Assembly (NCBI RefSeq): GCF_025574485.1 | Contig: NZ_JAOBPO010000001.1 | Coordinates: 379,501 to 443,500 of the forward strand | DNA length: 64,000 nucleotides | DNA from: Kordiimonas aquimaris | GTDB lineage: Bacteria > Pseudomonadota > Alphaproteobacteria > Sphingomonadales > Kordiimonadaceae | Direction of reading: 5' to 3' | Part shown: positions 3,499 to 7,390 of the stretch, in pieces | Layout of the letters: every line of letters starts with the position of its first letter | Numbering within the stretch: position 1 is the first letter of the stretch | Translations under genes and position numbers: made by a program | The notes under the pieces: generated by a model | Told to the model about the DNA's origin: nothing | Seen by the model: only the letters and a program-made list of their open reading frames with translations | Database searches by the model: none

Positions 3499-4401
3499 TT
3501 ACTCTGCCAGAATTTTATCCATCAGAACGTACGTAATATCGGCATGACCATCACGGTAAGTCGTATAGAAGAGTATTTTTTCGTCATGACTTACAAAAGC
3601 ACCATACTCGTATTCAGCACTATTAACTTGTGCGCCTAAATTCCTGGGTACTGACCAGTGCACACCATCACGATATGATATATATAGGTCATCACCGCCA
3701 AAACCATCCTCTGCATCTGTTCGTGCAAAAATTATATACCTTCCTGCAGGATCAATAAAAGGATCCGGTTCAGAATGCGTGGTATTCAGTAGGTTTAAGC
3801 TACTGACGCTCCAGTCAAAACCAGACTTCTCGGCGACATACATATCCGAGTTTCCTTTCCCACCATCACGACGCGAACCAAAGTAGATATTAGTATTGCT
3901 GGCGACAGACGCATGAAAATCATTTTTGACAGATTTAAAAACACCCAATAAAGGCTCAGGCTCACCCCAATTATTGTCACCTTTATATATTACTTGCCAT
4001 AAATTCCAGTCTGACTCGCCCTTTTGCTCACCAGGTACAGCCCGGTCCGAACTGAAAACAACAAAACCGCCATCAGGTGAAAACCTTGCTGCACGGCTTC
4101 CTTCATCAGTTACAAAAGGGACTGGTTCAGGGGTTGTCCAATCATTATCGGATCGAAACGTTATGAATATCCGGTGTTCTGAGAAACCATTATTGTGCCG
4201 CCCAAAAAGCGCAACGTGACCGTTTGGGTGTATCGAAATCCAGGACTCTCCCGCATCAGTGTTAATTCTTTTGAGCAGGTTTGATAAAACAATATCATTT
4301 GTATAGGTAGCGTTGGCTGATTTCGCTGGTTGGCCTGCAACCAGATCGTTACTTAGAAATATTAACAACAGAGTAGAAAGAATTGATACCTGAGTACGCA
4401 T
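3499..4401 (-). CDS. Secreted PD40/TolB-like beta-propeller protein
   Basis: 300 residues with a signal peptide (MRTQVSILSTLLLIFLSNDLVAG). The rest carries repeated WD40-like PD40 motifs such as ARFSPDGGFVVFSSDR, IYFGSRRDGGKGNSDMYVAE, DPAGRYIIFARTDAEDGFGG and HDEKILFYTTYRDG. These blades are typical of periplasmic propellers resembling TolB or OmpA-associated PD40 proteins. No catalytic domain is attached, so a binding or scaffolding role is likely. A perfect GGAGG ribosome site sits eight bases before the ATG. Convergent with the SRPBCC gene. Confidence 0.8.
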   Translation of the reverse strand: MRTQVSILSTLLLIFLSNDLVAGQPAKSANATYTNDIVLSNLLKRINTDAGESWISIHPNGHVALFGRHNNGFSEHRIFITFRSDNDWTTPEPVPFVTDEGSRAARFSPDGGFVVFSSDRAVPGEQKGESDWNLWQVIYKGDNNWGEPEPLLGVFKSVKNDFHASVASNTNIYFGSRRDGGKGNSDMYVAEKSGFDWSVSSLNLLNTTHSEPDPFIDPAGRYIIFARTDAEDGFGGDDLYISYRDGVHWSVPRNLGAQVNSAEYEYGAFVSHDEKILFYTTYRDGHADITYVLMDKILAE

Positions 4402-4706: not shown

Positions 4707-5663
4707 TTATAGATACCATTCGATAAACTCATCAAAACTCAGCTTTCCGTCCGTATTCGCGTCCCAGCCTTGATAGTATTCATCGCTAATACTCTTCCAA
4801 TAATACCGTTGATGAGTAAAAGCCCATTTACCAACTGTCATTTCCATACTCAATTCCTCATCAGAAGTTACACCCTTTGAAGTACATGTTTGGGGCACTG
4901 GAAATTTTTGAGTATAATCTGTCACAGCATGGTTATGGAGGTCTTGCTTAAGCGCTTTAAGCTTTTGGCGCATCTCCTTAAGGCTAATACCGCCATCACC
5001 ATTGCCATCCAAAATGACAAACTCTCTTTGAAGCTCATATTGAGTTGGTAATAACTGAAGTTTGCTAAATTCAGCCAAAGACAAATCACCTGATGTATTT
5101 GTGTCCATAGCCAAAAATTTAGTTTTAATATGTGCACGGGCAATCTGGGTAAGTGCAGCATCACAACCTTGCAAACGCATACGCATTGCCTGACCAGTTT
5201 GTAAGTCCTTAGACCAGCCTTTCCTTAGGTCACCATCTATATGGAACCAGATTTCATTAAAAGAATAGGGTACCGGATACTTTTTCGCAGCATAAACACC
5301 GGACACATAAAACAGAAACTCAGCTTCTGATAAGCGTTCATTACTATCTTTATCTAAAACCTTAAAATAAGGAAGGGTCAAAGGGCTATCAAAGCCTTTC
5401 ACATCTTCATCACTTACTAAAAAGCCTGCAGACGCTATGGCCCCAATTATCATTCCTGAAACAACCATCATGAAACTCCTTTTATTGAATAGGTTTGCTT
5501 CAAAATGACCTCGCTCCAGATAAACCGTAATCGCATCACGCAAAACAGCACTCGCTGTTACATTTTCATGCTTACACGTATCCATAAATGCTTGCTTATC
5601 ATCATACGGAAGTCTGATCTCGATCACGTCAGACTTTTTATTCGATTTATTGTTGGTTTCCAT
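4707..5663 (-). CDS. Ribbon-helix-helix / single TM / four EF-hand protein
   Basis: 318 residues in three parts. Residues ~12-50 look like a CopG/Arc ribbon-helix-helix: strand IEIRLPYDDKQAF, then a helix pair with the N-x-T-A-S-x-V-L-R turn typical of the fold. One hydrophobic helix follows at ~63-83. The remaining ~235 residues hold four calcium-loop sequences: DKDSNERLSEAE (~104), DTNTSGDLSLAE (~187), DGNGDGGISLKE (~219) and DANTDGKLSFDE (~301). With the RHH inside, the EF-hands would lie in the periplasm. This suggests a membrane-tethered DNA binder that responds to Ca2+; that role is inference. Start: ATG at 5663, with a GTG three bases earlier; neither has a strong ribosome site. The gene stands alone in its transcription unit. 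Confidence 0.75.
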   Translation of the reverse strand: METNNKSNKKSDVIEIRLPYDDKQAFMDTCKHENVTASAVLRDAITVYLERGHFEANLFNKRSFMMVVSGMIIGAIASAGFLVSDEDVKGFDSPLTLPYFKVLDKDSNERLSEAEFLFYVSGVYAAKKYPVPYSFNEIWFHIDGDLRKGWSKDLQTGQAMRMRLQGCDAALTQIARAHIKTKFLAMDTNTSGDLSLAEFSKLQLLPTQYELQREFVILDGNGDGGISLKEMRQKLKALKQDLHNHAVTDYTQKFPVPQTCTSKGVTSDEELSMEMTVGKWAFTHQRYYWKSISDEYYQGWDANTDGKLSFDEFIEWYL

Positions 5664-5699: not shown

Positions 5700-5828
5700 A
5701 TGGCTATTATAGAACCATCTTACAAAGAAAAGCGTGTCGAGATCGAAAGCTATTCTGTCCCGACTGTTGTTCAGTTCTGTCGAGACACACTAGCGCATAA
5801 GGGTTTCAGCTATATAAACGCACAATAA
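5700..5828 (+). CDS. Possible small protein (42 residues), uncertain
   Basis: An ATG with AGGA just upstream opens a 42-residue frame (begins MAIIEPSYKEKRVEIES, ends GFSYINAQ) in the gap between comM and the RHH-EF-hand gene, on the opposite strand to both. The composition is plausible for a real small protein, but no family was recognised and the spacing of the ribosome site is tight. The stretch must also contain the promoter of the RHH-EF-hand gene, so it may be only regulatory DNA. Confidence 0.2.
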   Translation: MAIIEPSYKEKRVEIESYSVPTVVQFCRDTLAHKGFSYINAQ

Positions 5829-5848: not shown

Positions 5849-7390
5849 TTAACCGGTGCGACGCAGTGATGTTCGTGCGTCAATGCGCCGGTAATTCAGT
5901 GCCTCGGCAATATGCGGTGTAGACACCGTTTCACTAACTGCAAGATCTGCAATAGTGCGAGCAACCTTTAGCACTCGGTGATACCCGCGCGCAGAGAGTT
6001 GATATGTTTCAGCCGCTTTTTCCATTAGTGCGTGAGCGCTGCCATCAAGCTGCAGCACTTTTTCCAGTAGCTTACCGCTCATTTGGGCATTGATCTTCAC
6101 CTTCTGCGCATCTCTCTGTTCAACAAAACGCTGTGTTTGCCGCTCACGCGCAGCAGCCACACGCGCCGCAACAACACTGGATGGCTCGCCAATTGCTGGC
6201 GCGGACAATTCTGCGGCGGTTAAAGCAGGCACATCAACAAACAGATCGATACGATCATAAAGCGGACCAGATATTTTTGCCTGATAATCAGCACCACATA
6301 GAGGCGCACGGCTACAGGCCCGTGCAGCATCTGCCAAATATCCACAACGACACGGGTTCATTGCCGCAAGCAACTGGAACCTGGCTGGATATGTCACATG
6401 CGCTTGCGCTCTCGCGATAACAGCAGTGCCTGTCTCCAAAGGCTGGCGCAGCGCCTCTAACGCACTACGAGAAAACTCTGGCATCTCATCAAGGAAAAGC
6501 ACTCCATTATGCGCCAGTGATACTTCACCAGGGTTAGCATACGCGCCGCCACCAATAAGGGCTGGCTGACTAGCAGAATGGTGTGGTGATCGAAAAGGAC
6601 GGCCACGGGTAATGGCGCCATTTTCCAACGTACCAGCCACAGAAGCAACCATGCTGACTTCCAAGGCTTCCTCTGGTGTTAAAGGAGGCAATATAGAAGG
6701 CATTGCAGACGCCAGCATAGATTTACCCGAACCCGGCGGCCCCATCATTAGCATGGTGTGGCCACCTGCTGCAGCAACCTCAAGCGCACGTTTAGCTGTT
6801 TCCTGACCTTTAATATCAGCAAAATCCACATAACCAGAGCCTTGAGCCAACAATGGCTTAGCGGACGGCGCCGATAAAACCTGCACCCCTTTAAGGTGAT
6901 TCATAAGCGCCAGAAGGCTTGCCGGTGCCAAAACACCGTTACCGCCGGCCCACGAAGCTTCGGAGCCTGTTTCTGCTGGGCAAACAAACCCCATATCACA
7001 TGCATTGGCGTACATGGCAGCAGGTAAAACGCCTGCGACAGAACGTATGCTGGCATCCAGCCCAAGCTCGCCCATCACGACTACGCCCTCAAGGGCATCA
7101 GACGCAATAACACCCATAGCAACCAAAACCGCCACGGCAATGGGAAGGTCGTAATGCGACCCAGCTTTTGGCCGATTTGCAGGTGAAAGGCTAACAGTTA
7201 TTCGCTTTGGTGGAAGCGACAACCCAATGGCAGACAAGGCTGCGCGCACACGTTCTCGTGCTTCACTAACCGCTTTATCTGGCAGGCCCACAATTGTGAA
7301 GGACGGCAAGCCGTTAGACATCATCACCTGCACCTCTACGCGGCAAGCTTCAATTCCTTCAAAGGCGACTGTTTCAATGGTTGCTACCAT
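5849..7390 (-). CDS. comM: YifB/ComM family Mg-chelatase-like AAA+ ATPase
   Basis: 513 residues, full length for the family. The N-terminal Lon-protease-like domain (residues ~20-170: SNGLPSFTIVGLPDKAVSEA, then SLSPANRPKAGSHYDLPIA) is followed by an AAA+ module with Walker A GPPGSGKS near residue 215 and Walker B GVLFLDEMPEF. A C-terminal Mg-chelatase segment ends in YRRIDARTSLR. ComM is a hexameric helicase that promotes branch migration during natural transformation. The gene is often found near gshB, yraN and rsmI in proteobacteria; here those lie at the other end of the window. Confidence 0.93.
   Translation of the reverse strand: MVATIETVAFEGIEACRVEVQVMMSNGLPSFTIVGLPDKAVSEARERVRAALSAIGLSLPPKRITVSLSPANRPKAGSHYDLPIAVAVLVAMGVIASDALEGVVVMGELGLDASIRSVAGVLPAAMYANACDMGFVCPAETGSEASWAGGNGVLAPASLLALMNHLKGVQVLSAPSAKPLLAQGSGYVDFADIKGQETAKRALEVAAAGGHTMLMMGPPGSGKSMLASAMPSILPPLTPEEALEVSMVASVAGTLENGAITRGRPFRSPHHSASQPALIGGGAYANPGEVSLAHNGVLFLDEMPEFSRSALEALRQPLETGTAVIARAQAHVTYPARFQLLAAMNPCRCGYLADAARACSRAPLCGADYQAKISGPLYDRIDLFVDVPALTAAELSAPAIGEPSSVVAARVAAARERQTQRFVEQRDAQKVKINAQMSGKLLEKVLQLDGSAHALMEKAAETYQLSARGYHRVLKVARTIADLAVSETVSTPHIAEALNYRRIDARTSLRRTG

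What the first reader, a model, noticed from the sequence alone, without database searches (positions are those of the whole stretch)
4707..5663. Ribbon-helix-helix domain fused across a membrane helix to four EF-hands
Seen: an N-terminal RHH-like segment (IEIRLPYDD..., N-x-T-A-S-x-V-L-R), one hydrophobic helix at ~63-83, and four calcium loops with D-x-[DN]-x-[DGS] spacing. Known: CopG/Arc RHH proteins bind DNA as dimers; EF-hands bind Ca2+. Inference: with the N-terminus inside, this is a one-component transmembrane calcium sensor with direct DNA contact. I do not recall a described system of this layout. Loop 1 has Asn109/Glu110 in place of the usual Gly and may be weak.
Basis: partly seen in the sequence, partly recalled or inferred. 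Interest (0 to 1): 0.7.

Follow-up and report, generated by a model that had tools for sequence, protein, structure and literature searches.

The report
Membrane-anchored EF-hand gene regulator
A marine bacterium encodes a protein that appears to hold a DNA-gripping domain inside the cell and calcium-binding loops outside the inner membrane, and it belongs to a family whose genes carry a shared DNA target site, so it is probably a one-piece switch linking the cell envelope to gene activity.

Summary
In detail: 4707-5663 (-) encodes 318 aa with an N-terminal ribbon-helix-helix (RHH) domain, one membrane helix and four EF-hand loops. It is not a one-off. A genome scan with the RHH part alone found 160 relatives and kept 80 loci; their 83 distinct proteins all have a hydrophobic segment 48-73 residues after the RHH motif start (16.4 expected), and 73 have an EF-hand loop after it (1.4 expected). 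Henriciella members carry a TonB_C domain instead. A palindrome, TGTCCGGACA (loosely TGTCNNGACA), lies upstream of these genes or of a convergent partner, often an extra signal peptidase: 81 exact copies within 2.5 kb of the gene (433,624 bp), 1 farther off (589,331 bp). Copies repeat at 21, 22 or 32 bp, on one DNA face. The window gene has three such sites at -124, -102 and -81; two sites 22 bp apart with at most one mismatch occur once in its 3.8-Mb genome, there. Best reading: a membrane-tethered, self-regulating one-component regulator of the known transmembrane-transcription-regulator kind, with a new pairing of DNA-binding and sensor domains. Calcium sensing and direct DNA binding are untested.

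The parts
4707..5663 (-). CDS of the RHH-TM-4xEF-hand protein (318 aa plus stop)
   Evidence: full-length paralog in the same genome and relatives
5508..5639 (-). RHH domain, residues 9-52; K9, K10, E15, R17, K23, S38, R42 invariant in 83 aligned sequences (for most of them K9, K10, E15 and R17 were part of the search pattern)
5415..5480 (-). transmembrane helix, about residues 62-83; R62, G70 and G74 invariant in 8 four-loop Kordiimonadaceae sequences
5319..5354 (-). EF-hand loop 1, residues 104-115
5070..5105 (-). EF-hand loop 2, residues 187-198
4974..5009 (-). EF-hand loop 3, residues 219-230
4728..4763 (-). EF-hand loop 4, residues 301-312
5163..5165 (-). Cys167, invariant in 8 four-loop Kordiimonadaceae sequences (possible disulfide with Cys260, inferred)
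4884..4886 (-). Cys260, invariant in 8 four-loop Kordiimonadaceae sequences
5778..5787 (-). operator-like site O1, TGTCTCGACA, at -124 from the ATG
5756..5765 (-). operator-like site O2, AGTCGGGACA (1 mismatch), at -102, 22 bp from O1
5735..5744 (-). operator-like site O3, GATCTCGACA (2 mismatches), at -81, 21 bp from O2
5717..5725 (-). TTGTAAGAT, possible -10 region; TTGTA lies 62-63 bp after the start of an operator-like site in 10 of 15 promoters of four-loop genes
   Evidence: role as -10 inferred

Best explanation
The gene encodes a single-pass, membrane-tethered one-component transcription regulator. The cytoplasmic RHH domain, as a dimer, binds 10-bp TGTCNNGACA palindromes. The periplasmic part is a four-loop EF-hand module, perhaps held by one disulfide. 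Three operator-like sites about two helical turns apart lie just upstream of the gene's own likely promoter, so the protein most likely controls its own gene and perhaps few others. The even spacing puts every bound dimer on the same face of the DNA, as expected if the DNA is docked on the membrane. Shown here by computation: the domain layout, its conservation, and the gene-linked phased sites. Inferred: that the RHH domain is what binds the sites, dimerisation through the RHH domain and the GxxxG-like helix, the sign of regulation (the position upstream of the possible -10 suggests activation at least as much as blocking), and that Ca2+ or another EF-hand ligand in the periplasm changes the DNA-binding state.
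For: Family selected on the RHH part alone: 83 of 83 distinct proteins have the hydrophobic segment (16.4 expected after shuffling the same stretch) and 73 of 83 an EF loop behind it (1.4 expected). Sites: 35 of 89 upstream regions hold exact TGTCCGGACA, about 0.1 expected; 81 exact sites within 2.5 kb of the gene against 1 farther away. The 3 relatives found later in other families of the class by the RHH profile all have TGTCNNGACA within about 160 bp upstream of the likely start (positions worked out by hand). Phasing: of 104 sites, 29 have a neighbour at 21 bp, 27 at 22 bp and 9 at 32 bp, 0.4-0.7 expected each. Window gene: the only place in its genome with two sites 22 bp apart at 1 mismatch or fewer. 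In K. laminariae (3.6 Mb) the only exact palindrome lies at -119 of its four-loop gene. The RHH-adjacent signal peptidase gene has two sites before it in 5 of 5 genomes, the 9 other S26 genes of the same genomes have none.
Against: No direct binding data. No Pfam RHH family reaches its cut-off in the window protein. 9 of 80 loci have no TGTCNNGACA in the expected places, and 48 of 90 genes examined have none within 300 bp upstream of their own start (many of these have it before the partner gene). The patterns are not enriched genome-wide (loose 49 against 42 for the reversed control in the window's genome; exact 40 against 38 summed over 11 genomes), so the regulon is small or the other sites are chance. 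O2 and O3 of the window are imperfect. The gene is patchy: 13 of 19 genus genomes have no match. K9, K10, E15 and R17 were part of the search pattern for most relatives, so their invariance there is partly by selection. The full AlphaFold2 model is weak (pLDDT 69.2). No evidence of a Ca2+ effect.
Confidence: 0.77

Rival explanations
1. Membrane-anchored DNA-binding autoregulator as above, but the EF-hand part is a structural or protein-binding module that stays Ca2+-loaded; the real signal is another periplasmic protein, envelope state or proteolysis.
For: Marine habitat with high Ca2+ (recalled); the RHH-membrane part is also joined to TonB_C and to another domain (L148), so the EF-hands are one of several sensor types; SPARC_Ca_bdg matches in 8 of 8 four-loop sequences.
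Against: Acidic positions 1 and 12 of all four loops are invariant in 8 sequences that are about 30% identical to the window protein, so ion binding is likely under selection.
Confidence: 0.4
2. In Caulobacteraceae-type members the hydrophobic segment with P-S-x-A is cut by a signal peptidase, releasing the EF-hand part, and the RHH part reports signal-peptidase load by controlling the neighbouring extra lepB gene.
For: lepB near the gene in 37 of 80 loci, 35 of them tail-to-tail, 33 with a gap of at most 210 bp; operator-like site before lepB in 35 of those 37; P-[SATV]-x-A at the segment end in 60 of 83 proteins.
Against: No lepB near the window gene and no such motif in the window protein; tail-to-tail genes need not be functionally linked; cleavage is untested.
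Confidence: 0.3
3. The palindrome is the site of another transcription factor, and the RHH-like segment does not bind DNA.
For: No binding experiment; Pfam RHH scores are below cut-off.
Against: The element seen near the sites across own promoters, lepB promoters and Kordiimonadales partner promoters is the RHH-membrane gene; 5 of 5 against 0 of 9 S26 promoters within the same five genomes.
Confidence: 0.1
4. RHH antitoxin of a toxin-antitoxin pair fused to unrelated parts.
For: The best PDB profile match is an antitoxin (DinJ).
Against: No toxin-like gene seen beside it: neighbours are a comM-like gene (recalled from its sequence) and a PD40 protein; all 83 distinct relatives have the membrane segment.
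Confidence: 0.02

Closest known systems
Transmembrane transcription regulators (TTRs) such as ToxR and CadC; survey PMC10269533 (abstract, part 1 of 2 of Results, and Methods read)
   Same: Cytoplasmic DNA-binding domain, one membrane helix and a periplasmic sensor domain in one chain
   Different: ToxR/CadC use a winged helix (recalled); here the DNA-binding domain is RHH and the sensor EF-hand or TonB_C. The survey used Pfam models, and the RHH part here lies below Pfam cut-offs in the members scanned; its main text holds no 'RHH', 'ribbon', 'CopG' or 'calcium', but it speaks of over a hundred DNA-binding domains listed in supplementary tables that were not seen
RHH repressors and antitoxins (Arc, MetJ, CopG, RelB/DinJ, ParD, NikA, AmrZ)
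   Same: Strand-helix-helix layout and, by recall, short palindromic operators in phased arrays
   Different: Those named are soluble (recalled); here a hydrophobic segment follows the domain in all 83 distinct relatives
Periplasmic bacterial EF-hand proteins such as Caulobacter CaBP (PMC13171946, passages seen)
   Same: EF-hand loops placed in the periplasm of an alphaproteobacterium
   Different: CaBP is described as a 133-aa three-loop protein with a Sec signal peptide; its authors postulate an unidentified membrane component. Whether the RHH-membrane-EF family is that component is unknown
Signal peptidase I (Peptidase S26, LepB)
   Same: Neighbour whose promoter carries the palindrome in Caulobacteraceae-type loci
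   Different: Not part of the window locus

Membership tests
RHH superfamily | one strand followed by two helices, resembling known RHH proteins | tested here: met
   Two helices in the right place, pLDDT 86.6; the strand is not assigned, as expected for a single chain; Foldseek top 14 all RHH by recalled names, none significant alone; PDB profile hit DinJ E 2.7e-4
RHH superfamily | passes a curated RHH model | tested here: not met
   window protein: DUF6290 E 0.03, below cut-off; best of the relatives scanned: RelB E 5.6e-4, 20.2 of 22.4 bits
RHH superfamily | intertwined dimer and sequence-specific DNA binding | not testable with these tools
   no dimer prediction or binding assay; site conservation is indirect support
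Transmembrane transcription regulators | DNA-binding domain plus at least one membrane helix in one chain | tested here: met
   subject to the RHH rows above
Transmembrane transcription regulators | controls a target promoter from the membrane | tested here: inconclusive
   phased sites at own promoter; no expression data
ToxR/CadC family | winged-helix DNA-binding domain | tested here: not met
   the N-terminal part is RHH-like
EF-hand | 12-residue loops with D1 and E12, passing a Pfam cut-off | tested here: met
EF-hand | binds Ca2+ | not testable with these tools
   needs ITC or similar
Type II antitoxin | cognate toxin gene adjacent | tested here: not met
   neighbours of the window gene inspected

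The most novel reading that the evidence does not exclude
An alphaproteobacterial family of membrane-tethered RHH regulators with exchangeable periplasmic sensors (one to several EF-hands, or TonB_C), each reading a phased TGTCCGGACA array on one DNA face docked at the membrane. In one branch the regulator is itself a signal-peptidase substrate and controls a dedicated extra signal peptidase, so that secretion load and calcium are sensed together. The window protein is the uncleaved, four-loop, self-regulating branch.
Probability: 0.3. Interest if true: 0.88.

Novelty: new variant of a known kind. Interest (0 to 1): 0.76.

Why it matters
It would be an RHH-based transmembrane regulator with a calcium-binding sensor, together with its predicted operator, giving a directly testable route from periplasmic calcium or secretion state to transcription. 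A recent Caulobacter study (PMC13171946, passages) says that the membrane component linking periplasmic EF-hand sensing to transcription is unknown; a member of this family lies in C. vibrioides strain DSM 9893 (L149), beside an extra signal peptidase gene preceded by two copies of the site. The same-face spacing of sites also offers a clean test of how a membrane-bound factor reads DNA.

Tried and rejected
Weak NCBIfam hit to XopAW (35.2 bits, cut-off 120; residues 183-272, the EF-hands): rejected. Toxin-antitoxin reading: no toxin seen beside it. Plasmid spread: no match at E 1e-3 for P0001 or the L139 protein in 72,556 plasmid records. A large regulon in the window's genome: loose palindrome 49 against 42 in the reversed control, not supported. 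Wide spread over the class: only 4 of 240 class genomes, own included, have the RHH at E 1e-6 or better; in the order samples most further matches of A1 and A2 are EF-hand stretches only, so the family is lineage-restricted. A single conserved neighbour for the window type was not found: paralog near TonB receptor/FecR/ECF sigma, K. laminariae type next to TraB/GumN, others differ. My first neighbour clustering took some antisense ORFs for genes in GC-rich loci and undercounted lepB; one search replaced it. A count of P-S-x-A (56) searched whole proteins despite its label; one search recounted it at the segment end (60). Of the 7 loci with a site elsewhere on the 3' side, L129's lies inside a gene and L108's partner start is unclear, so only 5 are good partner-promoter cases. 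Literature: 'ribbon-helix-helix' with 'EF-hand', alone or with 'Caulobacter' or 'transmembrane', gave 0 papers; one search gave 0; none of the listed titles or abstract starts describes this layout (one search listed 20 of 485, 15 of 31); the string TGTCCGGACA gave 18 papers, none with a bacterial subject in the listed titles and abstract starts. Only open PMC text was searched.

Full report
WHAT IS THERE. Window 4707-5663 (-) is an open frame of 318 codons plus stop from ATG 5663, with a GTG one codon upstream. Pfam finds EF-hands above cut-off. The N-terminal 60 residues have the pattern of a ribbon-helix-helix (RHH) domain but reach no Pfam RHH cut-off. Four further lines support RHH: sub-threshold hits of relatives to several RHH families; a profile of 16 sequences whose best PDB match is the RHH antitoxin DinJ, E 2.7e-4; an AlphaFold2 model with mean pLDDT 86.6 and helices 20-32 and 37-51 (a single chain cannot show the paired strand); and a Foldseek list headed by ParG, an antitoxin, ParD, KacA, YiiF, NikA and Arc, coherent by recalled names though not individually significant (best E 0.27). 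The full-length model is weak overall (pLDDT 69.2, pTM 0.53), better in the EF-hands; its Foldseek list is calmodulin-type EF-hand proteins, best E 2.6e-3 with low TM-scores.

IT IS A FAMILY. The genome itself has a full-length paralog (29% identity) and a shorter relative. Some part of the protein matches in 6 of 19 genus genomes and in 10 of 29 genomes of the taxonomic family, so the gene is patchy. Among 8 four-loop Kordiimonadaceae sequences (A1; two near-identical, two tandem paralogs) the invariant residues include Asp1 and Glu12 of every loop, Cys167, Cys260, Arg62, Gly70, Gly74 and RHH residues. In a wider set of 18, E115, D187, E198 and D219 stay invariant and D104 and D301 nearly so, while the two cysteines and the glycines no longer reach 90%. 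A scan of genome contigs with the RHH part only (A3, 52 residues) found 160 relatives and kept the best 80, in records named after Kordiimonas, Ponticaulis, Henriciella, Parvularcula, Maricaulis, Caulobacter, Phenylobacterium, Brevundimonas, Sphingomonas and others. Of 83 distinct proteins, 83 have a hydrophobic segment (16.4 expected after shuffling the same stretch) and 73 an EF loop behind it, against 1.4 expected from shuffled tails. The ten without are six Henriciella proteins (two scanned, both TonB_C above cut-off), L148 with another domain, two short ones (L133, L144) and L109, cut by its contig end. K+R before the segment exceed those after in 76 of 83, equal in 7. A 122-aa relative (L036) has RHH and a C-terminal hydrophobic segment only. 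The search pattern contains KK[ST]Ex[IL]E[VI]R[LV], so conservation of those residues in the 80 loci is partly by selection; K23, S38 and R42 are not in the pattern and are also invariant in the 83 rows of A5.

THE SITE. Upstream regions of 89 genes share exact TGTCCGGACA in 35 cases, about 0.1 expected in order-1 shuffles. In the 80 loci the exact palindrome occurs 81 times within 2.5 kb of the gene (433,624 bp) and once beyond (589,331 bp). By locus, TGTCNNGACA lies upstream of the gene itself in 29, upstream of a nearby lepB in 27, both in 8, elsewhere within 2.2 kb on the 3' side in 7, and in none of these places in 9. Of the 7, five Kordiimonadales loci (L085-L088, L107) have it 64-106 bp before the start of a tail-to-tail partner gene with a signal-peptide-like start, three of them twice, 32 bp apart; L129's lies inside a gene and L108 is unclear. 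The window's own genome shows the same: its only exact copy (C1:105985) lies 105 bp before the partner of its short relative. lepB lies near the gene in 37 of 80 loci, 35 tail-to-tail and two in the same direction; 33 of the 35 have a gap of at most 210 bp and 15 overlap; 35 of the 37 carry the site before lepB. In five Caulobacteraceae genomes the adjacent S26 gene is one of 2-4 S26 matches; 5 of 5 adjacent ones have two TGTCNNGACA sites, 0 of 9 others have one within 450 bp before the domain. Three relatives met only afterwards in other families of the class have, read by eye, the RHH, a hydrophobic segment, EF loops and TGTCNNGACA upstream: an out-of-sample check, 3 of 3.

PHASING. Around 104 sites, a second site with two mismatches or fewer lies at 21 bp in 29, at 22 bp in 27 and at 32 bp in 9 cases, against 0.4-0.7 expected; pairs in which both members are in the list are counted from both sides. 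These are whole helical turns, so dimers would sit on one DNA face. That fits docking at a membrane; it is also usual in soluble cooperative factors (recalled), so it is support and not proof.

THE WINDOW PROMOTER. Sites lie at -124 (TGTCTCGACA), -102 (AGTCGGGACA) and -81 (GATCTCGACA) from the ATG. Searching the whole genome for two sites 22 bp apart with up to 3 mismatches gives 18 places (12 for the reversed control); one has 1 mismatch, the other 17 have 3; that one is the window gene's promoter (other spacings were not searched genome-wide). A single TGTCNNGACA in the window is not rare by itself: two in 64 kb, 0.95 expected. A TTGTA element lies 62-63 bp after the start of an operator-like site in 10 of 15 promoters of four-loop genes, one of the 15 being a broken copy; in the window it begins a TAAGAT that could be the -10. 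By hand count the sites would then sit at about -73, -51 and -30 from the transcription start. The first two suit an activator and the third overlaps the -35, so the sign of control is open. A consensus scan listed no sigma-70 site there. The comM-like gene upstream (recalled name) ends at 5849, so the array is intergenic.

HOW IT LIKELY WORKS. RHH dimers at the inner face of the membrane hold the phased array; the periplasmic EF-hand module changes the dimer geometry through the GxxxG-like helix when its ligand state changes; the output is the level of the regulator itself and possibly few genes. Shown by computation: layout, conservation, sites. Inferred: binding by RHH, dimer, sign, ligand. 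In the Caulobacteraceae-type branch the output seems to include an extra signal peptidase, and over the whole set the segment ends in a signal-peptidase-like P-[SATV]-x-A in 60 of 83 proteins, which suggests but does not show a feedback loop.

KNOWN OR NEW. One-component regulators in the membrane are a known kind (TTRs; PMC10269533, abstract, part 1 of 2 of Results and Methods read). That survey relied on Pfam models, and the RHH here is below their cut-offs in the members scanned; its main text has none of the words RHH, CopG, ribbon or calcium; its supplementary tables were not seen. Ten literature searches listed no description of this layout (long hit lists were seen in part). I therefore file it as a new variant of a known kind.

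LIMITS. Most genomes searched are unnamed; the window lies in a genome of the genus that includes Kordiimonas laminariae (G002 and L104 share a contig length of 507,590 bases). The 80 loci are the best half of 160, so counts lean towards sequences close to the query. Related loci are not independent, so the statistics overstate the number of independent events; the spread over several families and three promoter settings partly answers this.

Noticed in passing
L105, L106, L111, L112, L113, L115 (Henriciella): The same RHH-membrane part is joined to a different periplasmic domain, TonB_C in the two scanned (Pfam 1.1e-7 and 1.7e-8), with the exact palindrome about 100 bp upstream in all six.
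   Followed up: partly
L149:7333-8136 (-) and 32 further loci: A signal peptidase I gene lies tail-to-tail within 210 bp of the short RHH-membrane-EF gene, in 15 cases overlapping it, mostly with one or two copies of the site before it. In the five genomes tested it is one of 2-4 S26 genes.
   Followed up: partly
L166:7778-8881 (-), own genome C1: A 368-aa protein with a signal-peptide-like start and no Pfam match lies tail-to-tail with the short RHH-membrane-EF gene and has the genome's only exact TGTCCGGACA 105 bp before its start.
   Followed up: partly
L121 and L146/L169: Two to four RHH-membrane-EF genes stand in tandem in Kordiimonadales MAGs, some with a variant site TGTAAGGACA/TGTCCTTACA.
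   Followed up: no
L172:6882-7897: A broken four-loop copy (stop inside) has no TGTCNNGACA within 200 bp of its likely start.
   Followed up: no
L036:1381-1662: A short relative with RHH and a C-terminal hydrophobic segment only, beside a rhodanese-like gene (recalled from its sequence).
   Followed up: no
window 3499-4401 (-): PD40 beta-propeller protein with a signal-peptide-like start, downstream of the finding.
   Followed up: no
L165:7879-12504: The window protein's paralog lies tail-to-tail with a TonB-dependent receptor, followed by FecR and an ECF sigma factor.
   Followed up: no
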